NCBI GenBank assembly: GCA_029565415.1
Contig: JAKQOH010000075.1
Location: 1 to 63,879 of the forward strand
From: Candidatus Rifleibacteriota bacterium
GTDB taxonomy: Bacteria > Riflebacteria > Ozemobacteria > Ozemobacterales > Ozemobacteraceae
Reading direction: 5' to 3'
DNA: 63,879 nt
Shown piece by piece: positions 35,307 to 45,929 of this stretch (position 1 is its first letter; each line of letters opens with the position of its first letter). The position numbers and the translations under genes were made by a program. Below the pieces are notes generated by a model that saw only the letters and a list, made by a program, of their open reading frames with translations, made no database searches and was not told the DNA's origin.

Positions 35307-36911
35307 GTGACATCGACCGCCACCTGCTTTGCAACCTCGGCGTTGCGCCCCCGTCCGTCGGTTCTCCTTTTCATCCTTGTCATCATCGCATTGTTCGTCT
35401 CCGCCGGAGAACTTGTCGCCCAGCAGACGCCATCCGGCCAGCCGGCGACCGTTTCCCTGGCCGATGTCGATCGTGACGGCCTTGGTGACGCCACCATCGA
35501 GACCCGGCGCCTTCGCATCATTCTCTCCAGTCGGACGGGGGATATCTCGGTCTACTATCTCAAGGGCGTGAATTACGAGGAAAATCTGTTCCCGCCGATC
35601 CTGATGGATGCCGGGTATCCGTTCGCCACGGGAACGATCGCGCCGTTCTCGGCGACGATCGGCGCCGAGTCGATGAATACGCGCGGCTATACCATCGCCG
35701 TTGCCGAAAAAACCGCCGATCGCCTCGTCATCAAGGCGACCTACAACAATGTCGTTCCCGGCTCCCAGGCTGGCGGTGTCGGGCTGGTCAAACAGTATAC
35801 CTTCAGCACCACGGGGTATGCCTTCGAAGTCGCCTATCTGCTCACGAATCTCGGTTCCCAGCTCATCGAGGTGGCCGATGGGCGGCAGAATGGCCTGACC
35901 GTCAGTTATGGTCCCGGCCTGTTCCTCGATCCGTTCAACCCCTCTTCGGTTCTTGCGCTCAAGCCGGACACCCATGAAACATACGACTCTCCCGAGACGT
36001 TCATGCAGAAAACTGTCGCCGGCGGGTATACCGGTGTGGGTCTCAAAACCACATATTTCTGCATGCTGCTCGACGCGAAACAGCCCGTGAAGCTGGCTGC
36101 AACGGGATTCCCGGTCAAATCCGACGATTCCCGCAAGCGCGAATTCAAAGGCGAGCTGGTCTCGGCTGCGATCCCCGCGTTCACCCTCAAACCCCAGGAA
36201 GGGAAGACCTTCTCCTTCCAGGTGTATTTCGGACCCAAACTGCTCGACGAGCTGCTCGCCATCAAGCGCGATGCCGTCACGGATTACGGCTTCCTCAGCA
36301 CCCTGCTTCTGCGCATCCTCCAGTTCTTCAACGCGATCTATCCGAACTTCGGCCTCTCGATCGTGTTCCTCACCATCGTCGTGCGGCTGATCCTGTATCC
36401 GCTGACCCTCAAGTCGACCAAGTCGATGGCCCAGGTCCAGAAGCTCCAGCCCCTGGTCCAGGACCTGAAAGACCGGCATCGCGACGATCCCCAGAAGTTC
36501 AACGAGGAAGTGCTCAAGCTCTACCAGAAACACAATGTGAACCCCCTCGGCGGCTGTCTGCCGATGCTTCTCCAGTTGCCGATATTGATTGCGCTATATA
36601 ATACGATAAATATTGCGGTCGAACTTCGCAAGATGCCGTTCCTCTGGATGGCGGATCTGTCGAAGGCCGACCCGTATCTCATCCTGCCGATCGCGATCGC
36701 GGCCCTGATGTATTACCAGCAGGGAACCAGCAACATGGATCCGCAGCAGCAGCAGATGATGGCGTTCATGCCGATGTTCATGTTCGTCATCACCTGGTCG
36801 CTGCCCGCCGGGCTTCTGGTATACTGGTTCACGAGCAGCGTCATCGGCATCATCCAGCAGATCCAGGCCAACAGAATCATGTCGGCCGCGAAGGAGAAAA
36901 TCACCCCATGA
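35307..36911 (+). CDS. yidC: Membrane protein insertase YidC
   Basis: A 534-residue insertase of the diderm type. It has an N-terminal helix (about 14-31), a periplasmic beta-domain (about 50-325) and the conserved five-helix core (from about 330), including FGLSIVFLTIVVRLILYPLTLKS, GGCLPMLLQLPILIALY and LVYWFTSSVIGIIQQ. It folds and inserts inner-membrane proteins with or without SecYEG. The GTG start at 35307 has GGAGG about 7 bp upstream. The large periplasmic domain supports a two-membrane envelope. A tract of AT-rich codons at 36580-36617 encodes part of the core and contains TATAAT at 36597-36602. Coupled to jag by an ATGA overlap. Confidence 0.95.
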   Translation: MTSTATCFATSALRPRPSVLLFILVIIALFVSAGELVAQQTPSGQPATVSLADVDRDGLGDATIETRRLRIILSSRTGDISVYYLKGVNYEENLFPPILMDAGYPFATGTIAPFSATIGAESMNTRGYTIAVAEKTADRLVIKATYNNVVPGSQAGGVGLVKQYTFSTTGYAFEVAYLLTNLGSQLIEVADGRQNGLTVSYGPGLFLDPFNPSSVLALKPDTHETYDSPETFMQKTVAGGYTGVGLKTTYFCMLLDAKQPVKLAATGFPVKSDDSRKREFKGELVSAAIPAFTLKPQEGKTFSFQVYFGPKLLDELLAIKRDAVTDYGFLSTLLLRILQFFNAIYPNFGLSIVFLTIVVRLILYPLTLKSTKSMAQVQKLQPLVQDLKDRHRDDPQKFNEEVLKLYQKHNVNPLGGCLPMLLQLPILIALYNTINIAVELRKMPFLWMADLSKADPYLILPIAIAALMYYQQGTSNMDPQQQQMMAFMPMFMFVITWSLPAGLLVYWFTSSVIGIIQQIQANRIMSAAKEKITP

Positions 36912-37924
36912 AACGATTCATCGAGATCACGGCACGAACGGAAGACGAAGCGATCCAGCTGATCGAGCGCGAGCTCAAGCCGAACGAGACGATCACCGGG
37001 CGTGAAGTGCTTGCAGCGCCGCCGCGCGGCCTGTTCGCCGCCGTCGGGAACCCCGAGATCCGCATGCGGTTCGCAATCGAACCCAAGGTGTCCGCCGCCC
37101 CCGCCGAGCCGCGCCCCATCGCCCCGGCTCCCCAGCCCGCGGTGGCGCCTGCCCCGGCGCCCGCCCCCCGGCGGCCGGCTCGTCCCGAGAGGCCCGCGGT
37201 TGCAGCTGCTCCGACCCCTGCGGCTGAAGAAGGGGACGAATACGACTTCGAGGATGCCGAATCCGACGTCGCCCCGGGCCATGGCGGCAAACAGGCCCCC
37301 CTGGGAACCGATCACCCGATGCACGACACCGTCCACCAGATCGTGACCCATGTCGCCGGCTTCGTCGGCGTCACGGATGTCGAGCTGGTCGACCGCGTCG
37401 CCGACGGGGTCTGGACCGTCGATGCCGCCGGAACCAACGTATCGCAGCTGATCGGCAAGCACGGCCGGACGCTCGATGCCATCCAGTACATCGTGAACAT
37501 CATCGCCAACAAGGGCCGGGAAGGCCGCGCGAAGCTCGTCATCGACGTCGAGGGCTACCGCGAGAAGCGGCACAAGGGCCTCGTTCAGCTCGCCAACCGC
37601 ATGTACCACAAGGTCATCGACTCCGGCCGCCAGGTCGAACTCGAGCCGATGTCGACCCTCGACCGCCGCACGATCCACCTCGCCCTGAAAGACCGCAACG
37701 GCATCGAAACCTTCTCCAAGGGCACCGAGCCGATGCGCCGTGTCGTGATTGCCCCGACCCGGCCCGCCGGCGATCCGATGCCGCCCCGCCGGCCCCGCTC
37801 GGGCGGCGGATACCGCGGAAACCGCGGCGGCGACCGGCCCCAGCGGCCCGCCGGAGAGCCGGCGACCGAGCCGAAGAGCACCTCCGTCCCGATGTTCATG
37901 GAGGACTTTTCCGACGAAGATTGA
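36908..37924 (+). CDS. jag: RNA-binding protein Jag (KhpB)
   Basis: A 338-residue protein with all three Jag domains. Jag_N is at 1-55 (MKRFIEITARTEDEAIQLIERE split by family consensus). A proline/alanine-rich and acidic linker spans about 58-130. A KH domain carries LIGKHGRTLDAIQYIVNIIANK (about 175-200). An R3H domain carries EKRHKGLVQLANRMYHKV and DRRTIHLALKD (about 215-265). It binds RNA and is linked to cell-division and envelope control in other bacteria. The C-terminal Arg/Gly/Pro-rich tail is unusual. It overlaps yidC by 4 bp, and its stop TGA overlaps the inferred mnmE start. Confidence 0.92.
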   Translation: MKRFIEITARTEDEAIQLIERELKPNETITGREVLAAPPRGLFAAVGNPEIRMRFAIEPKVSAAPAEPRPIAPAPQPAVAPAPAPAPRRPARPERPAVAAAPTPAAEEGDEYDFEDAESDVAPGHGGKQAPLGTDHPMHDTVHQIVTHVAGFVGVTDVELVDRVADGVWTVDAAGTNVSQLIGKHGRTLDAIQYIVNIIANKGREGRAKLVIDVEGYREKRHKGLVQLANRMYHKVIDSGRQVELEPMSTLDRRTIHLALKDRNGIETFSKGTEPMRRVVIAPTRPAGDPMPPRRPRSGGGYRGNRGGDRPQRPAGEPATEPKSTSVPMFMEDFSDED

Positions 37925-39284
37925 CACGATCGCAGCCGTGGCCACGCCGCCAGGCCGTTCGGCCATTGGCGTGATCCGCGTGTCGGGCCCCGAAGCCGGC
38001 ACGATTCTGCAGAAGATCTTCAGGCCGCGGGGGAAGCGTGTTTTCCCCGCGGCTTTTTCCGCCTATGCCGGCGAAATCCGCGATCCCGCCGACGGCCTCG
38101 TCGTCGACCGGGTCGTCGTCCAGACCTTCCTCGCGCCGGCATCCTACACGGGGGAAGACCTGGCCGAGATCGGTGCTCACGGCAATCCGGCCGTCCTGGC
38201 GCGTCTGCTCGGCGTCGTGCTTGCCGCCGGTGCCCGGGTCGCCGAGCCGGGAGAGTTCACGAGACGGGCGTTTCTGAACGGCAAGATGAGTCTGCTCGAC
38301 GTCGAGGCGACGGCCCGGCTGCTTGATGCCACGACCCCCGGCCAGATCCGGGTCGCCATGAACCAGCTCGACGGAGCCCCGACCCGGCGCGTGAAAGCTC
38401 TCCGGCAGCGGCTTCTCGACCTTCTTGTCCAGCTCGAGGCCGGTCTGAATTTTCCCGAGGATGCCATCGAGGATGTCGATCCGGAACGCATCCTGAAAGA
38501 ACTGACCAGTGCCGAGGCGGATCTGCGGAGATTCGCCGAGTCGGCCCGCCATGGGGACCAGGTGGCGGCCGGCCTCCGGATCGTCATTGCCGGGCCGCCG
38601 AATGCCGGAAAATCCAGCCTCATGAATGCCCTGCTCGGCCGTGACCGGGCGATCGTCACCGAGATCCCCGGCACGACGCGCGACACGCTCGAGGAGTCGA
38701 TCTCCCTGCATGGCGTCCCCGTGCGGCTCGTCGACACCGCCGGTCTGCGCGAGGCCGCCGACCCGATCGAGGAGCTCGGCATCGGCCGCACGCGGCGGGC
38801 GATCGAACGGGCCTTCGCCGTCGCGGCCGTGTTCGACGTCTCGGTCAATGCCGGCATCGAAGAAACCAGGATCATCCATGAACTTCAGGAGGCCGGTCGG
38901 CCGGTCATCGCGGTGCTGAACAAGACGGATCTGCCGGCGGCCGTGAAGCTTCCCGCGATTCCCCCCGAGTGGCCGGTGGCGCGGATTTCCGCGACCGAAT
39001 CCCGCGGGATGTCCGAATTGATCGCCATCATTGGCGAACTCGTGCGTGAGGCAGGGCTGGATGCTCTGGATGAACTGCTGCTCCTCGGCGCCCAGCAGCG
39101 CCAGGCGCTTGGGGCGGCTCTCGAGGCCGTGACGCGCGCCCGTGACGGGGTTGGAAAAATATATGAAGATATGCTTGCGCTCGAGATCGAGGAGGCGGTT
39201 CGTCAGATGGGCCGGATCACCGGCGAAACGGCCGACCTGGGGATGCTCGACCGCATCTTCGAACGGTTCTGCATAGGAAAATGA
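37920..39284 (+). CDS. mnmE: tRNA-modifying GTPase MnmE
   Basis: A 454-residue enzyme that, with MnmG, builds the 5-(carboxymethyl)aminomethyl group on wobble U34 of certain tRNAs. The N-terminal tetrahydrofolate-binding domain begins DTIAAVATPPGRSAIGVIR. The G domain has GPPNAGKSS (about 223-231), GTTRDT, DTAGLRE and NKTDL, and the C-terminal CIGK is the catalytic CxGK. No ATG, GTG or TTG lies where the family starts. The only codon giving the expected length is ATT at 37920-37922, overlapping the jag stop (ATTGA). An open frame runs to an ATG at 37749, but its extra 57 residues are jag in another frame. The start is therefore inferred. Confidence 0.9.
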   Translation: MDTIAAVATPPGRSAIGVIRVSGPEAGTILQKIFRPRGKRVFPAAFSAYAGEIRDPADGLVVDRVVVQTFLAPASYTGEDLAEIGAHGNPAVLARLLGVVLAAGARVAEPGEFTRRAFLNGKMSLLDVEATARLLDATTPGQIRVAMNQLDGAPTRRVKALRQRLLDLLVQLEAGLNFPEDAIEDVDPERILKELTSAEADLRRFAESARHGDQVAAGLRIVIAGPPNAGKSSLMNALLGRDRAIVTEIPGTTRDTLEESISLHGVPVRLVDTAGLREAADPIEELGIGRTRRAIERAFAVAAVFDVSVNAGIEETRIIHELQEAGRPVIAVLNKTDLPAAVKLPAIPPEWPVARISATESRGMSELIAIIGELVREAGLDALDELLLLGAQQRQALGAALEAVTRARDGVGKIYEDMLALEIEEAVRQMGRITGETADLGMLDRIFERFCIGK

Positions 39285-41191
39285 CGACGATGATCCATGT
39301 TCCCGTGATCGTGGTCGGCGCCGGGCATGCCGGCTGCGAGGCCGCCCTTGCCTCGGCCCGCCTGGGGGTGCCCACGCTGCTGCTGACGATGAACCTCTCG
39401 ACCGTCGCGCTGATGCCGTGCAATCCGAGCATCGGCGGCCCGGGGAAAGGCCATCTGGTGCGCGAGATCGGGGTTCTTGGCGGCGAGATGGCCGCGGCGA
39501 TCGATGAGACCTGCATCCAGCTCAAATGGCTGAACACCTCGAAAGGGCCCGCCGTGCGGGCGCGACGCGCCCAGGCCGACAAGGAACTCTACCGGCGCCG
39601 CATGCTCCAAGCCTTGTTCGAAACGCCCGGACTGACCCTGCGCCAGGGGCATGTCACCGCGATCCTGACCGCGAACGGCCGGGTGTGCGGGGTCGAGCTC
39701 GAGACCGGCATCCGGTTCGGCTGCGATCGTCTCGTCCTCGCCACGGGCACGTATCTGGAAAGCCGGATCATCGTCGGCCGCGAAACGTGGCCGGGTGGTC
39801 CGCACCAGCAGCGCGCCGCGACGGGGCTTTCCGGATCCCTGCAGGCCGCCGGGGTGGCGATGCGCCGTCTCCAGACCGCGACGCCGCCCCGCCTCGACGC
39901 CGCTTCCATCGACCGCGCCCGGATGCGCGAGATGCCGGGAGACCCTCTTGCCGGCGGCTTTCTGTGGGAACACCGACTCCGCCGTCTCCACGACCAGCTC
40001 TCCTGCTGGCTCACCTTCACCGACGAACGCACGATCGCCGCGGTGCGCCGGCACATCCAGGACAGTCCGCTGGTGGTGGGCAACATCACGAACGTCGGCC
40101 CCAAGCACTGCCCCTCGATCGACCGCAAGGTGCTCAAATTCCCCGAGATGGCGCAGCACCAGATCTTCGTCGAGCCCGAAGGGCGCGAATCCGGCGAAGT
40201 GTATCTCCAGGGGCTGACCACCAGCATGCCCCCCGAGGCCCAGCGCGACGTCGTGACGAGCGTGGCGGGCCTCGAAAACGCCCGGATCGTGCGATACGGC
40301 TACGCGATCGAGTATGACGCCCTCGCTCCGGGCTGCCTGCGCAAGAGCATGGCCTCGCGGGCGCTGGAGGGCCTGTACACGGCCGGCCAGATCAACGGCA
40401 CCTCGGGATACGAGGAAGCCGCGGCCCAGGGATTGATCGCCGGCATCAACGCGGCCCGGTCGGTGCTCGGGCTGCCTGCCTTCCTGCCATCGCGAACCGA
40501 TGGATATATCGGCGTGCTTATAGATGACCTCTCGCTCTGGGACCACCCCGAACCGTATCGCATCACCCCTGCAAATGCCGAGTTCCGCCTCCATCTGCGG
40601 GACGACACGGCCGAGGCCCGGCTGATCGATGCCGCCCGCCGGGTCGGTCTCGTGAGCGGGGACCGCCACGAAAAAATCGGGGCCTGGCTCGGGGAGATCG
40701 TCGCTGAGGCCGGCCGGCTCGATGGGATTTCCGTAACGCCGACGGCGGCGCTGCGCGAGAAATTGGCCGAGACCGGAACGGGGGGACTCAAAAAGCGGGT
40801 GACCGCTTCCGAGATTCTGCAGCGGCCCGGGGTGGGGTATGCCGATCTTGCAAGCCTCGTCGAGGGGTTCGCGCCCGCCCTTTCCGCGCCGGACCAGGTC
40901 GAAACGCTCGAAATCGGGGTCAAATACCGCGGATACGCGGCCCGCGAGGCCGAACGCATGGAGGAAACACGTCGCCTGGAGCAGCTCCGGCTGCCCCTGC
41001 CTCTGCCGCCCGGAGCGGGAGCCGGTCTCACCGAGGAAGCCCGCGAAGTGATCGGCTCGAACAGGTTCGAGGATCTGGCCCAGGCTGCACGAACCCGTTG
41101 CCTCGGACGGGCCGATCTTGCTATGCTGTGGACGCTGTTCGGCGGTCGACCCGTTCCGTCACTCCAGCAGGAAGATGAGGTTACCCCATGA
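39281..41191 (+). CDS. mnmG: MnmG (GidA) tRNA modification flavoprotein, copy 1
   Basis: A 636-residue GidA-family FAD protein, partner of MnmE. It keeps the FAD motif GAGHAGCEAALASARLG, the cysteine motif CNPSIGGPGKGH, the second cysteine in GPKHCPSI, and AGQINGTSGYEEAAAQG. It departs from the family elsewhere: LQTATPPR replaces the usual KTGTPPR, SIDRK replaces SIEDK, and TPANAEFRLHLRDD stands for the TSRAEYRLxLRxDN signature, so the TSR is lost. The C-terminal helical domain is present. It overlaps mnmE by 4 bp (ATGA) and is followed by a HEAT gene and a second MnmG. It may act alone or with copy 2; activity is not certain. Confidence 0.88.
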   Translation: MTTMIHVPVIVVGAGHAGCEAALASARLGVPTLLLTMNLSTVALMPCNPSIGGPGKGHLVREIGVLGGEMAAAIDETCIQLKWLNTSKGPAVRARRAQADKELYRRRMLQALFETPGLTLRQGHVTAILTANGRVCGVELETGIRFGCDRLVLATGTYLESRIIVGRETWPGGPHQQRAATGLSGSLQAAGVAMRRLQTATPPRLDAASIDRARMREMPGDPLAGGFLWEHRLRRLHDQLSCWLTFTDERTIAAVRRHIQDSPLVVGNITNVGPKHCPSIDRKVLKFPEMAQHQIFVEPEGRESGEVYLQGLTTSMPPEAQRDVVTSVAGLENARIVRYGYAIEYDALAPGCLRKSMASRALEGLYTAGQINGTSGYEEAAAQGLIAGINAARSVLGLPAFLPSRTDGYIGVLIDDLSLWDHPEPYRITPANAEFRLHLRDDTAEARLIDAARRVGLVSGDRHEKIGAWLGEIVAEAGRLDGISVTPTAALREKLAETGTGGLKKRVTASEILQRPGVGYADLASLVEGFAPALSAPDQVETLEIGVKYRGYAAREAERMEETRRLEQLRLPLPLPPGAGAGLTEEAREVIGSNRFEDLAQAARTRCLGRADLAMLWTLFGGRPVPSLQQEDEVTP

Positions 41192-43302
41192 TTCCCAAGC
41201 GACAGCAGGACCTGATCATCCAGAACCTCCGCTCGATCTCGGCGGAAGTGCGTCTCAAATCGGTTCGCCAGGTGCCGAACCTGACGCTTCCGGATGACGA
41301 AAGAATCAGGCTGCTGACGCCCCTGCTCGAAGATGCCGAGGAAGAGGTGCGAACCGCGGCCAGGCGCATGCTGACCGAACTGGGAGGCAGTGTGCCAGTT
41401 GCGGCACCGATTCCGCAGAAGCCCACCGACCCGGTCCCAGATCTCCCGCTTCCGCCTGCGGATGAGCCGGTGCCTTCCGAACCGCCTGCCCCGGCAGTTC
41501 CGGCCGTTGCTGCGGCGTTGCCGTCTCTGACAGACGAGGTGCCCGAGATCGATGCCTCGCTTCTTTCGTCCAGCACCGGCAAGAAGCCGGCATTGTCGGG
41601 GAAACGGCCGGCGGGGCCTCTCGTCATCGAAGCGCCGGATCTCGACGAACAGGTCGACCCGGCGCTGCCCGATCCCGAGAAAATGAAAAGCATTCCGGAG
41701 CTGCTCGAGCACAGCCGGTTTCTGGTCCGGAACCGCCCCCCCGGCCATCTGACGCAGCTTCTCTGGATGGCCCGCCAGGTGCACGAAGAGGTCGCCCTGA
41801 CCGCTCTCCAGGGGCTTCTGACGCTCAAGGACCCCCGGGTTCCGGTCCAGGTGCTTCCGTTCCTGGCCATCCCGAACTTCTCGTCGCAGCGGCGGTTTCT
41901 CGTTCTGAAAATCATCATGGAGACCCGTTCGGCGCTCGACGTCGAGCCGCTGGAACAGGTGCTGCTCGCCGAGAAGGACGTCATCGTCAAATCCGGGCTG
42001 GTCAAGGTGTTCGCCCGCATGGCCGGCGAGAACGGCGTCGAGACGATCCGCCAGTGTCTTGCCGACCCGGATGCCCGTGTGCGCGCCAACACGGTCGAGG
42101 TGATCGAGGAGCGGAACATCCGCAGCTGCGAAGACGATGTCGCGAAGCTGCTGAAGGACCCCGAGAACCGGGTCAAGGTCAACGCCGCGAAGTTTCTCGT
42201 CAAGTGCGGCCACGCCGAAGCCTTCGCCACCCTGCGCTCGATGCTTGGCTCGTCCGAGGTCTGGCTGCGCGACAGCGTGATCTTCGCCCTCGGCGAGATC
42301 GGCGACCAGCCTTCTCTGACGCTGCTCAAGGCGGCGCTCAAGGATACGAACCAGGGAATCCGCCTGAGCGTTCTCAAGGCTCTCGCGAAGATCAACAACA
42401 CGGTGTCGCGCGAGGTCCTTCAGTCCACGATTTCCGACCCCGACAACGTCGTGGCCCAGGTGGCGCGCGGTCTGTGGGAAAAGATCAAGGATGCCCCGAA
42501 GCCGGGAACTTCCGCTGCCCAGGCCCCCGTTCCCGCTCCGACATCGGTAGAGCCGGCGATGAAGCCCGTTGCGGGCGGCACCGTCGGTCAGCCTCCCGTC
42601 GGGCTGATCGCGCCTTCCGCTGCGCCGGCGGCCGTGCCGAAGTTCTCCCTGTCGGCCGCGAAACCTCCTGCGAAGGCGCCGGTTCCCGAGCCTGAACCTG
42701 AACCGGAACCGGAACCCCAGCCCCCCGAGCCGGTGTTGCCGCCGGTCGCCGAGGAAGCCCTTTCCCTGCCCCCCGTGCCTCCGGCCCCGGCACCCGAACC
42801 GCCGCCGCCGCCCCCTGCCGAACCGGCCCCCGAGCTCCCGCTTCCGGAGCTGGAAGACGTTCCGCCAGCGGTCGCCGGCAAACCCGCGCATGTCCACGAA
42901 GCGCCGTCTGACGAGGCCCCGGCCCGGTCGCCGCAGCCTTCTGCGACGGCTCCCGCCGCACCGCGCCCGTCTGCAACCGCAGCCGAGCCGGTCGTTCCGC
43001 TGCCACCCGGGGTGAAATTCCAGAAGCCCCGCTCGATCCAGGTGTACAACCGCCTCATGTCAGGGGATGACGGAGAGGCTGCGAAAGCGATCGCCGACAT
43101 GCCCTTCATCGTCGGTGACGACCAGAATATCCTCATCTACTTCGCTGCCCAGCATGCCAACGACGGCGTGCGCCTGGCCGCGGCAAAACTGCTTGCCCGC
43201 AAACGCGGTCCCCATGCGGTCGAACTGATGAAGGTGCTGCTCGATGATCCTTGCGAACTGGTCAGCTCCTTCGCTGCAAAAGCCTTGACGATCCTCAAGT
43301 GA
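41188..43302 (+). CDS. HEAT-repeat protein with proline-rich linkers
   Basis: A 704-residue protein without signal peptide. A short HEAT pair occupies about 1-70, a Pro/Ala linker about 75-125, a main HEAT/ARM solenoid about 165-435 (for example DPDARVRANTVEVIEE, LKDTNQGIRLSVLKALAK), and a long Pro/Glu/Ala-rich segment about 440-615. A final HEAT pair (about 625-704) ends the protein. HEAT solenoids are protein-interaction scaffolds; no catalytic motif is seen. It is coupled by ATGA to mnmG copy 1 and by GTGA to mnmG copy 2, so it is made together with both and might scaffold the modification complex. That link is inference from position. Confidence 0.85.
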   Translation: MIPKRQQDLIIQNLRSISAEVRLKSVRQVPNLTLPDDERIRLLTPLLEDAEEEVRTAARRMLTELGGSVPVAAPIPQKPTDPVPDLPLPPADEPVPSEPPAPAVPAVAAALPSLTDEVPEIDASLLSSSTGKKPALSGKRPAGPLVIEAPDLDEQVDPALPDPEKMKSIPELLEHSRFLVRNRPPGHLTQLLWMARQVHEEVALTALQGLLTLKDPRVPVQVLPFLAIPNFSSQRRFLVLKIIMETRSALDVEPLEQVLLAEKDVIVKSGLVKVFARMAGENGVETIRQCLADPDARVRANTVEVIEERNIRSCEDDVAKLLKDPENRVKVNAAKFLVKCGHAEAFATLRSMLGSSEVWLRDSVIFALGEIGDQPSLTLLKAALKDTNQGIRLSVLKALAKINNTVSREVLQSTISDPDNVVAQVARGLWEKIKDAPKPGTSAAQAPVPAPTSVEPAMKPVAGGTVGQPPVGLIAPSAAPAAVPKFSLSAAKPPAKAPVPEPEPEPEPEPQPPEPVLPPVAEEALSLPPVPPAPAPEPPPPPPAEPAPELPLPELEDVPPAVAGKPAHVHEAPSDEAPARSPQPSATAPAAPRPSATAAEPVVPLPPGVKFQKPRSIQVYNRLMSGDDGEAAKAIADMPFIVGDDQNILIYFAAQHANDGVRLAAAKLLARKRGPHAVELMKVLLDDPCELVSSFAAKALTILK

Positions 43303-45161
43303 TCCCGCACGCGCAGGTCATCGTGGTGGGTGCCGGCCACGCCGGCTGCGAGGCGGCCCTGGCTTCGGCCCGGGCGGGCGCCGAGACGCTCCTGCTCACG
43401 ATCAGCCTCGACACGATCGCGGCCATGCCCTGCAACCCCAGCATCGGCGGCCAGGGAAAAGGCCACCTGGTGCGCGAGATCGACGCGATGGGCGGGGCCA
43501 TGGGTATCGTCGCCGATGAAACCAGCCTTCAGGCGCGTCTCCTGAACACCCGCAAAGGTCTCGCCGTCCAGGCGATTCGCATCCAGTCCGACAAAGAGGC
43601 CTACGCGCGCCGGATGCGCCAGGTGCTGCGATCCACCCCTCGCCTCCATCTCGCCCAGGCGACCGTGACCGGCCTTCTGCTGGAAAACGGCCGCCCGGCC
43701 GGCGTAACGACCCAGGCCGGCGATGTCTGGCGCGCGCCGGTGGTCGTGCTCGCCCCGGGAACATTCCTGCGGGGCGTGATCCATATCGGCGAAGCCCGCT
43801 TTGGCGCAGGCCGCGCGGGAGAACCCCCGGCGGATGCCCTGGGCGAAGAACTCGAACGGATCGGGCTGCCGGTGCGCCGGTTCAAGACCGGTACCCCACC
43901 CCGGATCGCCTCGGCGACGATCGATTTCTCTGGACTCGAACGCCAGGATGACGAGCCCGCCACACCGATGTTTTCCCTCTGGTCGGCCCGCGGCGCGGCT
44001 TCCGTGCGTCTGCCCTGTCATCTCACGCGCACGACCGAGGCGACCCATGCGGTGATCCGCGCGCACATGCACGAGTCGGCCCTGGTCGCGGGGCGGATCT
44101 CGGGCACGGGGCCCCGATACTGCCCGTCGATCGAGGACAAGGTCGGCAAGTTCCCGGAAAAAACGGCGCACAAGGTGTTTCTCGAACCCGAAGGCGCGGA
44201 CGGCCGGGAGATCTACCTGCAGGGGATGTCGACGAGCCTGCCCGAAGCCGTGCAGGAAGAGTATGTCCGCACGCTGCCGGGACTCGAAAACGCGCGTCTG
44301 ACGCGGCCGGGATATGCGATCGAGTATGACGTGGCGGATCCGAACGCCTTGTACCCCACCTTGATGTCGAAGCGCGTGCCGAACCTGTTTTTCGCGGGCC
44401 AGATCAACGGCACCTCGGGGTATGAGGAGGCCGCCGCCCAGGGGCTCCTGGCTGGCTGGAACGCGGCGGCCGTCGCTCTGGGCCGGCCACCGGCCATTCT
44501 GTCGGCCCGTGACTCGTATCTCGGGCTGCTGGTCGAGGAGATCACGATGCAGCCGCTTCACGAGCCGTACCGGATCTTCACCTCGCGATCCCCCTGGCGG
44601 CTGGAGCTGCGCATGTCGAACGCCGAGGCGCGCTTGTCACGAATCGCCGCCGATGCCGGTCTGATCGACGAGACCCGGCGGACGGTTCTCGGGGAACGGC
44701 AGCACCGGCTGGACGAGGCCGCCGCCCTCCTGGCCGGCCGCCAGATCGAACCTGCCGTCGCCGTCGCTCTCACGGGAGGGCCGGTCCAGGGCCGGGTTTC
44801 GCTGGAGCAGGTGCTGAAGCGGCCTGAGGTGCGGCTCGAAGCCATGCGCGAGCTGGTGCCGGAAATCGGGACGCTCGACCCGCTCGCCCGTATCGAGCTC
44901 GAGGCCCGCATCAAGTATGCCGGATACGCCGCCCAGCAGGAGCGCGAACTCGAACTGCTGGAACGGTTTCGGGAGCTGGCGCTGGCCCGGGAGTTCCTGG
45001 AAAAGCTGCCGACGGCCGTCTCGACCGAGGCCCGACAGCGCATCGCGGCCGTGCGGCCGGCCACCCTGGGCGAGCTGAGCCGCATTCCCGGTGTCCGCGC
45101 CGCGGATGTGGCCGCCGTCCTTGCCGCCCTGAAAGCCTCCTCCGGTCGACCGGAAAAATAA
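43299..45161 (+). CDS. mnmG: MnmG (GidA) tRNA modification flavoprotein, copy 2
   Basis: A 620-residue GidA-family protein, clearly diverged from copy 1. It has the FAD motif GAGHAGCEAALASARAG, CNPSIGGQGKGH, the canonical FKTGTPPR, GPRYCPSIEDK, RPGYAIEYD and GQINGTSGYEEAAAQG. It keeps FTSR but then reads SPWRLELRMSN where most MnmG have AEYRLxLREDN. A GTG at 43299 overlapping the HEAT stop (GTGA) is the best start; the TTG at 43251 would overlap more and adds residues outside the fold. In most motifs it is closer to typical MnmG than copy 1. It is followed 33 bp later by rsmG, the usual neighbour. Confidence 0.9.
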   Translation: MIPHAQVIVVGAGHAGCEAALASARAGAETLLLTISLDTIAAMPCNPSIGGQGKGHLVREIDAMGGAMGIVADETSLQARLLNTRKGLAVQAIRIQSDKEAYARRMRQVLRSTPRLHLAQATVTGLLLENGRPAGVTTQAGDVWRAPVVVLAPGTFLRGVIHIGEARFGAGRAGEPPADALGEELERIGLPVRRFKTGTPPRIASATIDFSGLERQDDEPATPMFSLWSARGAASVRLPCHLTRTTEATHAVIRAHMHESALVAGRISGTGPRYCPSIEDKVGKFPEKTAHKVFLEPEGADGREIYLQGMSTSLPEAVQEEYVRTLPGLENARLTRPGYAIEYDVADPNALYPTLMSKRVPNLFFAGQINGTSGYEEAAAQGLLAGWNAAAVALGRPPAILSARDSYLGLLVEEITMQPLHEPYRIFTSRSPWRLELRMSNAEARLSRIAADAGLIDETRRTVLGERQHRLDEAAALLAGRQIEPAVAVALTGGPVQGRVSLEQVLKRPEVRLEAMRELVPEIGTLDPLARIELEARIKYAGYAAQQERELELLERFRELALAREFLEKLPTAVSTEARQRIAAVRPATLGELSRIPGVRAADVAAVLAALKASSGRPEK

Positions 45162-45194: not shown

Positions 45195-45929
45195 ATGTCC
45201 GTGATGGAATATATCGAGCCCTACCTCGGCCCGCTGGGCCTCGCAGTCGGCGGTGAGACGCGCGAAGCGCTCGAGCGATGGTGTGGTGTGATGCTGGCGG
45301 ATCCTCTGTATCCCAGCGTGTCGAAGATCAGGGAGCCGGAGGAGATCGCGACGAAGCATGTGCTCGACGCGCTCGCGCCGTTGGGCACGACCGCGCATCT
45401 CCCGTGCTGGAAGGGAGCCGACACGATTCTCGATATCGGCACCGGAGGCGGGTTTCCGGCCGTTCCGCTCGCGATCGCGCTTCCGAACAGCCGGGTGTAT
45501 GCGATGGATGCCAAGGGCAAGGCGGTCGATTTCGTCGGCCGCATGAAAAGCGGTGCCGGCATCGGCAATCTCGAGCCGGTGCTTGCCCGGGCCGAAGAGC
45601 TGGGCCGCGATCCGGCCTTCCGGGAAAAGATGGATCTCGTCGTGACCCGCGCCGTCGCCTCGGTCCGGATTCTTCTCGAACTCTGCCTCCCGTTGGTGCG
45701 CGTTGGCGGATATCTGCTGCTCTATAAGGGGCCGGCCTTGCAGGAGGAGCTTGCCGAGGCGGGCAAGGCCATGCAGGTGCTCGGTGTCCGGGTCGATGCC
45801 GTGCGGACCTTCACGTTCGAGCCTCCGCTGCTCCCCTTCACGCGCGGGTATGTGCTGATCCGGAAAAGCGCGCCGGTGCCGGCCGCCTATCCGCGGCGCA
45901 ACGGGGTTCCGGCCTCGCACCCGCTGTGA
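45195..45929 (+). CDS. rsmG: 16S rRNA (guanine-527-N7) methyltransferase RsmG
   Basis: A 244-residue SAM-dependent methyltransferase of the GidB/RsmG family, which makes m7G527 in 16S rRNA. The motifs ILDIGTGGGFPAVPLAIALP (about 77-96), MDAKGKAVDF and VVTRAVASVRILLELCLPLVRVGG (in parts) are family-typical. The start ATG at 45195 is preceded by ACGGAGAA and an unusually AT-rich 30-bp gap after mnmG. The C-terminal tail (PRRNGVPASHPL) is the usual RNGxP end. Together with mnmG it preserves the ancestral gidA-gidB order. Confidence 0.95.
   Translation: MSVMEYIEPYLGPLGLAVGGETREALERWCGVMLADPLYPSVSKIREPEEIATKHVLDALAPLGTTAHLPCWKGADTILDIGTGGGFPAVPLAIALPNSRVYAMDAKGKAVDFVGRMKSGAGIGNLEPVLARAEELGRDPAFREKMDLVVTRAVASVRILLELCLPLVRVGGYLLLYKGPALQEELAEAGKAMQVLGVRVDAVRTFTFEPPLLPFTRGYVLIRKSAPVPAAYPRRNGVPASHPL

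What the first reader, a model, noticed from the sequence alone, without database searches (positions are those of the whole stretch)
39281..45161. Two divergent mnmG (gidA) genes in one operon, joined by a HEAT-repeat gene
The cluster mnmE - mnmG copy 1 - HEAT - mnmG copy 2 - rsmG is translationally coupled (ATGA, ATGA, GTGA). Both copies keep the FAD motif and the two conserved cysteines (CNPSIGG and GPxxCPSI). They differ elsewhere. Copy 1 lacks KTGTPPR, SIEDK and FTSR but keeps AEFRLHLRDD; copy 2 keeps KTGTPPR, SIEDK and FTSR but has SPWRLELRMSN. The losses look partly complementary. MnmG is a homodimer in known systems, so this pair could form a heterodimer, or split two U34 modifications or tRNA sets, with the HEAT protein as scaffold. 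A coupled MnmG-HEAT-MnmG arrangement is not one I know.
Basis: partly seen in the sequence, partly recalled or inferred. Interest (0 to 1): 0.75.

Follow-up and report, generated by a model that had tools for sequence, protein, structure and literature searches.

The report
Ancient paired MnmG tRNA-modification enzymes
This bacterium carries two very different versions of an enzyme that normally occurs once and modifies the anticodon of transfer RNAs; the same pair, one of each type, recurs in distantly related bacteria, so the two probably work together as one mixed complex.

Summary
In detail: yidC-jag-mnmE-mnmG1-HEAT-mnmG2-rsmG, with both MnmG copies full-length (44% identical) and over the MnmG family cut-off. 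The window is very probably from Riflebacteria/Ozemobacteria. The copies are not recent duplicates but belong to two classes. MnmG1 has Q198, A200, D281, R282 (E. coli numbering; QTATPPR...SIDRK). MnmG2 has K198, G200, E281. Of 525 aligned rows (464 distinct), 223 are QADR, 298 KGE-type, 4 neither. 'Losing' KTGTPPR and SIEDK is thus a class signature, not decay. In the genomes searched QADR was not seen without a KGE partner, except where a contig ends. It lies in mnmG in 11 of 299 sampled Bacillota genomes, exactly the 11 with two full-length copies. All 21 Bacillota pairs examined (Halanaerobiales and a Limnochordia-like group) and 29 of 39 genomes of the window's phylum hold one of each. 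HEAT marks one clade only, so pairing does not need it. Known catalytic residues are conserved in both classes. Best reading: a two-class MnmG working with one MnmE, most likely as a heterodimer (untested). Rival: two homodimers with different substrates. The papers searched held no description of it.

The parts
37926..39284 (+). mnmE (GTPase partner of MnmG). True start uncertain; the frame is open upstream and an in-frame ATT at 37920 overlaps the jag stop
   Evidence: TIGR00450 365.3 bits against cut-off 252.6 (NF003661 371.7, just under its cut-off of 380) and MnmE Pfam domains; ends in FCIGK; start is my reading
39281..41191 (+). mnmG1, QADR class (QTATPPR, CPSIDRK); FAD motif and both catalytic cysteines kept; FTSR replaced by TPAN
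   Evidence: AlphaFold2 model pLDDT 91.7, best PDB match 9hip_C
41188..43302 (+). HEAT-repeat protein with long Pro-rich linker, between the two mnmG genes
   Evidence: Pfam HEAT_2 109.3 bits; same place in the 14 phylum genomes whose mnmG1-HEAT-mnmG2 stretch lies whole on one contig
43299..45161 (+). mnmG2, KGE class (KTGTPPR, CPSIEDK), GTG start overlapping the HEAT stop; AEY replaced by SPW, REDN by RMSN
   Evidence: AlphaFold2 model pLDDT 91.0
45195..45929 (+). rsmG (gidB), 16S rRNA G527 methyltransferase, end of the conserved cluster
   Evidence: TIGR00138 110.9 bits against cut-off 99.5
35307..36911 (+). yidC, conserved upstream neighbour (start as listed by the ORF tool)
   Evidence: same order in relatives; the name is recalled from the sequence and its place, no family scan was made
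36908..37924 (+). jag/khpB, conserved upstream neighbour
   Evidence: Pfam KH_KhpA-B and R3H domains

Best explanation
The two genes encode two ancient classes of MnmG that act together with a single MnmE in wobble-uridine (U34) modification, most likely as an asymmetric QADR:KGE heterodimer in place of the usual MnmG homodimer. Shown by computation: two separate classes; a single origin favoured for QADR; co-occurrence of QADR with KGE in the genomes searched; neighbouring genes in most; no genome with two MnmE; intact FAD and cysteine sites in both; class-specific changes concentrated in insertion domain 2, which holds the loop that receives the MnmE C-terminus. Inferred: that they bind each other; that the KGE protomer does the standard chemistry; and that the QADR protomer supplies the other half of the dimer with altered active-site or tRNA duties, fixing in the genes an asymmetry that known homodimers show in some states. 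HEAT is a later addition in one clade, possibly an accessory subunit.
For: Class split at sites 198/200/281/282: 223 QADR, 298 KGE, 4 other of 525 rows (464 distinct: 194, 266, 4). QADR is one side of a branch with those columns removed (SH-aLRT 93, 128 rows; UFBoot 76/SH-aLRT 96, 54 rows). CPSIDRK lies in mnmG in 11 of 299 Bacillota genomes, the same 11 with two full-length copies; in 0 of 264 single-copy genomes (Fisher P 7e-20, not corrected for shared descent). 21 of 21 Bacillota pairs are QADR then KGE, 29-43 bp between matched stretches. In the window's phylum 29 of 39 genomes hold both, in the order QADR-KGE in all 22 that have them on one contig; the 3 with QADR alone end at a contig edge where KGE would follow. 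One MnmE over the cut-off in 29 of 39 genomes, never two. C277 and K283 are invariant in all 521 class members, C47 in all but two gapped rows; no invariant FAD-domain site is lost in either HEAT-clade copy (0 of 34). His252 is kept in 283 of 298 KGE and 0 of 223 QADR rows; 313 and 316 also differ by class; 9 of 13 class sites lie in insertion domain 2 (P 0.002). In the HEAT clade MnmE D175, which contacts MnmG S431 in the E. coli cryo-EM complex (PMC12397908 section 20), is N or S in 19 of 19, against D in 63 of 63 other Bacillota plus E. coli, 3 of 3 Bacillota-pair and 11 of 11 other phylum sequences; in that clade MnmG1 has lost T430/S431. One tRNA per MnmG dimer (Aquifex, PMC4027165 section 16); one MnmE-engaged, FAD-bound subunit in the a2b2 complex (PMC12397908 section 18).
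Against: No physical evidence of a heterodimer; no complex could be modelled. Both copies keep every known catalytic residue, so each could work as a homodimer. Losses in the two copies overlap as chance predicts (1 against 0.95) and are not enriched at the MnmE interface (4 of 20 against 17 of 98, P 0.50). In the a4b2 state the E. coli MnmG dimer is symmetric, with MnmE and FAD on both subunits. In G005 and G006 the two genes are not adjacent. Three related genomes (G029-G031) keep KGE without QADR and without MnmE. No MnmE was found in G002 (QADR, HEAT) and G033 (both classes), although in G002 the contig holding jag ends right after it. The MnmE D175 change is one event on one branch.
Confidence: 0.5

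Rival explanations
1. Two separate homodimeric enzymes: KGE does the standard cmnm5U34 reaction, and the QADR class serves another tRNA set, another amine (glycine or ammonium), or even another RNA, sharing MnmE.
For: Both copies keep the known catalytic residues. Class-specific sites, including His252 absent from all 223 QADR rows, lie mostly in insertion domain 2, as expected for changed chemistry. E. coli MnmEG uses glycine or ammonium, with output depending on conditions and tRNA (PMC3936742, title and abstract start in the listing). The related flavoprotein TrmFO has a paralogue retargeted to 23S rRNA (PMC4081110 abstract). G005/G006 show the genes need not be adjacent.
Against: An independent enzyme should sometimes be found without its partner; in the genomes searched QADR was not, except at contig ends. 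Neighbouring genes in fixed order are kept across two phyla.
Confidence: 0.33
2. MnmG1 (QADR) is a regulatory or tRNA-binding helper that does no chemistry and tunes MnmG2.
For: QADR was found only with KGE, whereas KGE alone is common. Riflebacteria QADR copies have changed tRNA-binding positions R275 and R432 (sites from PMC4027165 section 16).
Against: C277 and K283 are kept in all 223 QADR rows and C47 in 221 (two gapped); no FAD-domain invariant site is lost.
Confidence: 0.12
3. A lineage-specific tandem duplication without special meaning.
For: Holding both phylum clades together is not formally rejected (p-AU 0.055).
Against: The QADR signature and further class sites are shared with Bacillota, whose QADR genes form one group with MnmG1; the pair is kept through the phylum.
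Confidence: 0.05

Closest known systems
MnmG/GidA homodimer of the MnmEG complex (E. coli, Aquifex, Chlorobaculum)
   Same: Fold, FAD and cysteine motifs, family HMM; neighbours mnmE and rsmG in Bacillota loci, rsmG alone beside mnmG in E. coli
   Different: Those are homodimers from one gene; here two genes of two classes
Tandem MnmG pair of Halanaerobiales and Limnochordia-like Bacillota (found here)
   Same: One QADR and one KGE gene, QADR first; between mnmE and rsmG in the 3 loci looked at
   Different: No HEAT gene between; both copies keep most of FTSRAEYRL; the KGE partners are not sister to phylum MnmG2 (p-AU 0.009)
RlmFO/TrmFO paralogues (PMC4081110, abstract seen)
   Same: Folate/FAD family with a paralogue that changed substrate
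   Different: Shorter proteins, no MnmE (recalled), a methylation reaction
Heterodimeric tRNA modifiers of the Trm6/Trm61 kind (PMC6382703, abstract and outline seen)
   Same: Precedent for heterodimeric tRNA-modifying enzymes
   Different: Unrelated fold; there one subunit has lost catalysis (recalled)

Membership tests
MnmG (TIGR00136) | Family HMM over curated cut-off, full length | tested here: met
   630.6 and 690.4 bits against 524.85
MnmG (TIGR00136) | FAD Rossmann motif and cysteines C47, C277 | tested here: met
   Both window copies; all class members, two gapped rows set aside
MnmG (TIGR00136) | MnmG fold | tested here: met
   Models pLDDT 91.7 and 91.0; MnmG1 model against 9hip_C TM 0.88/0.90. 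MnmG2 was not run in the fold search
   Met by MnmG2, not by MnmG1 (QTATPPR, CPSIDRK), as in the whole QADR class. MnmG1 passes the HMM without them
MnmG (TIGR00136) | Homodimer that binds MnmE and tRNA | not testable with these tools
   No complex prediction or experiment available
QADR class with KGE partner (proposed here) | QADR signature with a KGE MnmG in the same genome | tested here: met
   Window 39281-45161; 21 of 21 Bacillota pairs; 11 of 11 two-copy against 0 of 264 single-copy genomes
TrmFO | TIGR00137 or NF003739 over cut-off | tested here: not met
   67-71.5 bits against 428.65 and 79.2-88 bits against 262

The most novel reading that the evidence does not exclude
A second, ancient class of MnmG (QADR) exists that is an obligate partner of the ordinary class. 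Together they form a heterodimeric MnmG in which one protomer carries a rebuilt insertion-domain-2 active site, so the asymmetry of the MnmEG machine is genetically fixed and each half can be studied separately.
Probability: 0.45. Interest if true: 0.85.

Novelty: new variant of a known kind. Interest (0 to 1): 0.7.

Why it matters
MnmEG is nearly universal in bacteria and, as GTPBP3/MTO1, in mitochondria (general knowledge); how its two MnmG active sites share the work is open. A natural two-gene MnmG with a strict class signature would let each protomer be mutated on its own. It also shows that genome annotation lumps two distinct protein classes under one name.

Tried and rejected
Complementary-loss idea: tested as a whole and not above chance. 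Enrichment of changes at the MnmE interface: not significant. An exploratory result not predicted beforehand: MnmG2 losses concentrate in residues 398-540 (8 of 24 against 6 of 94, P 0.001). In-phylum duplication: p-AU 0.055, disfavoured but not rejected; the pair moved as a unit between phyla: p-AU 0.009 (both groups were named after the tree was seen). HEAT as a general scaffold: rejected, no HEAT match between the genes outside one clade. Own-genome search: none is held for the window. Dimer-interface residues were not found in the passages and sections read, so interface co-evolution could not be tested. Evolutionary-rate covariation was considered and not run. Other phyla were not censused, since handles existed only for Bacillota and the window's phylum; the three protein searches list the best 120 hits each, most without organism or neighbours, so QADR genes elsewhere, or alone, may have been missed. 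In one search only the four best candidates per genome were scored. The pattern census needs a near-exact CPSIDRK and would miss divergent QADR genes; its degenerate codons also hit CPRIDSK in G224 and CPWIDRK in G261 and G358. Many phylum genomes are fragmented and their completeness is not told. No tRNA gene lies in the window. Paper searches that gave no description of the pair: (PMC open-licence library only; listings read, few papers opened).
Full report
WHAT IS THERE. The window holds yidC-jag-mnmE-mnmG1-HEAT-mnmG2-rsmG on the + strand (yidC named from recall). The mnmE/mnmG1 and mnmG1/HEAT junctions are ATGA and the HEAT/mnmG2 junction is GTGA; rsmG follows after 33 bases. Both MnmG proteins are full-length, pass the NCBIfam MnmG cut-off, align nearly end to end with solved MnmG and fold confidently (pLDDT 91.7 and 91.0; fold search run for MnmG1 only, best hit the MnmG chain 9hip_C). 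They are 43.8% identical. Close relatives whose source names an organism are labelled Riflebacteria, Rifleibacter or Ozemobacter(ales), apart from one copy-2 hit labelled Clostridiales (P0152), so the window is very probably from that phylum; no whole genome is held for it.

TWO CLASSES. In one search I aligned 327 sequences: 110 of the MnmG1 clade, 128 of the MnmG2 clade, 89 others (some genes present twice, from a genome and from the protein database). Four positions (198, 200, 281, 282, E. coli numbering) split them: MnmG1 Q,A,D,R in 109 of 110 (the other has a masked X); MnmG2 K,G,E,D in 128 of 128; others QADR 21, KGE types 67, KDED 1. With all later sequences (525 rows, 464 distinct): QADR 223, KGE[D/V/T/S/A] 298, four others (one masked, KDED, NTED, one truncated odd gene). 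The labels QADR and KGE are mine. Further class-specific sites are 87, 252 (His in 283 of 298 KGE rows, none of 223 QADR rows), 313, 316 and 505; 9 of 13 such sites lie in insertion domain 2. That domain holds the loop 273-287, which becomes ordered on MnmE binding and, with K283, anchors the MnmE C-terminus (PMC12397908, sections 17, 18, 20, 21 read).

QADR WITH KGE. Two Bacillota loci of the first set were QADR (L012, L061). Their genomes, and that of Fuchsiella (L034, found QADR), turned out to have two MnmG side by side, while the other 14 genomes of that check had one. In the order that includes Halonatronum, 13 of 13 genomes have two. Among 299 Bacillota genomes drawn evenly, 277 have an MnmG match at E 1e-100 or better and 13 have two matches. 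Of those 13, one (G178) is a single gene split over contigs and one (G109) pairs a full KGED gene with a 474-residue odd copy; the other 11 are full pairs (G058, G059 and G062). The motif CPSIDRK lies inside mnmG in exactly these 11; the pattern also hits 3 single-copy genomes outside that motif or gene (G224, G261, G358). All 21 Bacillota pairs examined are one QADR and one KGE, QADR upstream, 29-43 bp between matched stretches. Of 44 single-copy Bacillota genes typed (30 of the 264 single-copy genomes, plus the 14), none is QADR. The three loci looked at (L012, L034, L061) show the order yidC-jag-mnmE-QADR-KGE-rsmG.

THE WINDOW'S PHYLUM. In 39 genomes (places read; genes under 400 aa, in G007, G018 and G028, assigned by best match only): 29 have both classes; 3 have QADR only (G002, G014, G037), each with the contig ending where KGE would follow; 5 have KGE only (G026 and G039 at contig edges; G029-G031 not); 2 have neither (G008, G011). 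Of the 29, 14 have HEAT between the genes on one contig, 8 have them adjacent with no HEAT match between (gaps up to about 0.8 kb, G032), 5 are broken by contig ends with a HEAT piece beside one of the genes, and 2 (G005, G006) have them apart. HEAT marks one clade, to which the window belongs. At the family cut-off 29 of 39 genomes have one MnmE and none has two. Of the other 10, three have a piece at a contig edge (G014, G024, G026) and seven have none (G002, G008, G011, G029-G031, G033). In G002 the contig ends directly after jag, and mnmG1 there follows a cNMP-binding/ParA-like gene instead of mnmE. A search with the window's Jag found none in G029-G031, but also none in G008 and G033, so it says little.

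HISTORY. With the four signature columns removed, QADR is one side of a branch in a 128-row tree (SH-aLRT 93) and a 54-row tree (UFBoot 76, SH-aLRT 96, 78% of 200 bootstrap trees). Phylum MnmG1 is a clade in all three trees (SH-aLRT 99, 100, 98). Phylum MnmG2 is a clade in two (78; 90/91) and unresolved in the third. In the 54-row tree it groups with Geothermobacter-type and E. coli MnmG (100/98), not with the KGE partners of the Bacillota pairs (p-AU 0.009 against one clade). Those partners form one group (87) but two. The simplest history is one origin of QADR and its later arrival in the other phylum beside a resident KGE gene; direction and date are not resolved. Forcing all phylum MnmG together is disfavoured but not rejected (p-AU 0.055).

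HOW IT MAY WORK. C277 and K283 are kept in every class member, C47 in all but two gapped rows, and N48, R96, R427 and R436 at 99-100%; none of 34 FAD-domain invariant sites is lost in either HEAT-clade copy. So neither copy looks dead. In known systems the MnmG homodimer can work asymmetrically: one tRNA per dimer (Aquifex, PMC4027165 section 16), and FAD and MnmE engaged on one subunit in the a2b2 complex, although both subunits are engaged in the a4b2 complex. Two genes that occur together, with class-specific changes in the MnmE-receiving domain and a single MnmE, are best explained by a mixed dimer with unlike halves. This is inference.

CO-CHANGE WITH MnmE. In the HEAT clade MnmG1 has lost T430, mostly S431, and R432, and MnmG2 has mostly lost E434 and D442. 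S431 contacts MnmE D175 in E. coli. MnmE D175 is D in 63 of 63 other Bacillota plus E. coli sequences, 3 of 3 from Bacillota pair loci and 11 of 11 other phylum members, but N (17) or S (2) in 19 of 19 of this clade. The MnmE hinge helix, which packs on the MnmG C-terminus, also changed there (126, 131, 133). This fits MnmE touching the altered copies, but it is one event on one long branch, and overall the lost invariant sites are neither enriched at the MnmE interface (P 0.50) nor more complementary between copies than chance.

tRNA CONTACTS. Of the Aquifex tRNA-binding residues (mapped by me to E. coli N48, R96, R275, K283, R286, R432, R436, Y551, R554), phylum MnmG1 mostly changes R275 (to K, 93%) and R432, and phylum MnmG2 mostly changes R554 (to Q, 86%). 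Bacillota pairs largely keep R275 and R432 in both copies and K or R at 554, though R286 varies in their KGE copies, so the phylum changes look like a later specialisation.

VERDICT. The pair is the HEAT-bearing branch of a two-class MnmG arrangement found in two phyla, for which the papers searched held no description. A heterodimer is the leading but untested mechanism.

Noticed in passing
window 37900-37940: mnmE has no ATG, GTG or TTG near the expected start; an in-frame ATT at 37920 overlaps the jag stop and could be a rare start codon.
   Followed up: no
L155, L156, L157 (G029-G031): Three related genomes carry a KGE-class MnmG beside rsmG, but no QADR MnmG and no MnmE was found; a MnmG without MnmE is odd.
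   Followed up: partly
L130 7729-9639 (G007): The QADR mnmG is interrupted by one in-frame stop codon; whether error or decay is unknown.
   Followed up: no
L122 (G001), L141 (G017); P0130, P0147, P0214: MnmG2 of the Ozemobacter group is 683-722 aa long; in P0130 and P0147 the alignment shows a low-complexity insert in the helical domain (P0214 judged by length only).
   Followed up: no
L304 (G109): A Bacillota genome has a 474-residue MnmG-like gene lacking the C-terminal region directly upstream of a normal KGED mnmG.
   Followed up: partly
L003: A record titled Candidatus Methylomirabilis holds the Riflebacteria-type mnmE-mnmG1-HEAT-mnmG2 cluster and is probably misnamed.
   Followed up: no
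L128, L129 (G006); L126, L127 (G005): In this branch the QADR and KGE genes are on separate contigs and not neighbours.
   Followed up: partly
L123 6828-8033 (G002): mnmG1-HEAT follows a gene with cNMP-binding and ParA-like domains instead of mnmE.
   Followed up: partly
MnmE of the HEAT clade (window 37926-39284 and 18 of the loci L172-L201): MnmE D175, D in all other sequences aligned, is N or S, and the hinge helix is changed, only in the clade with HEAT.
   Followed up: yes
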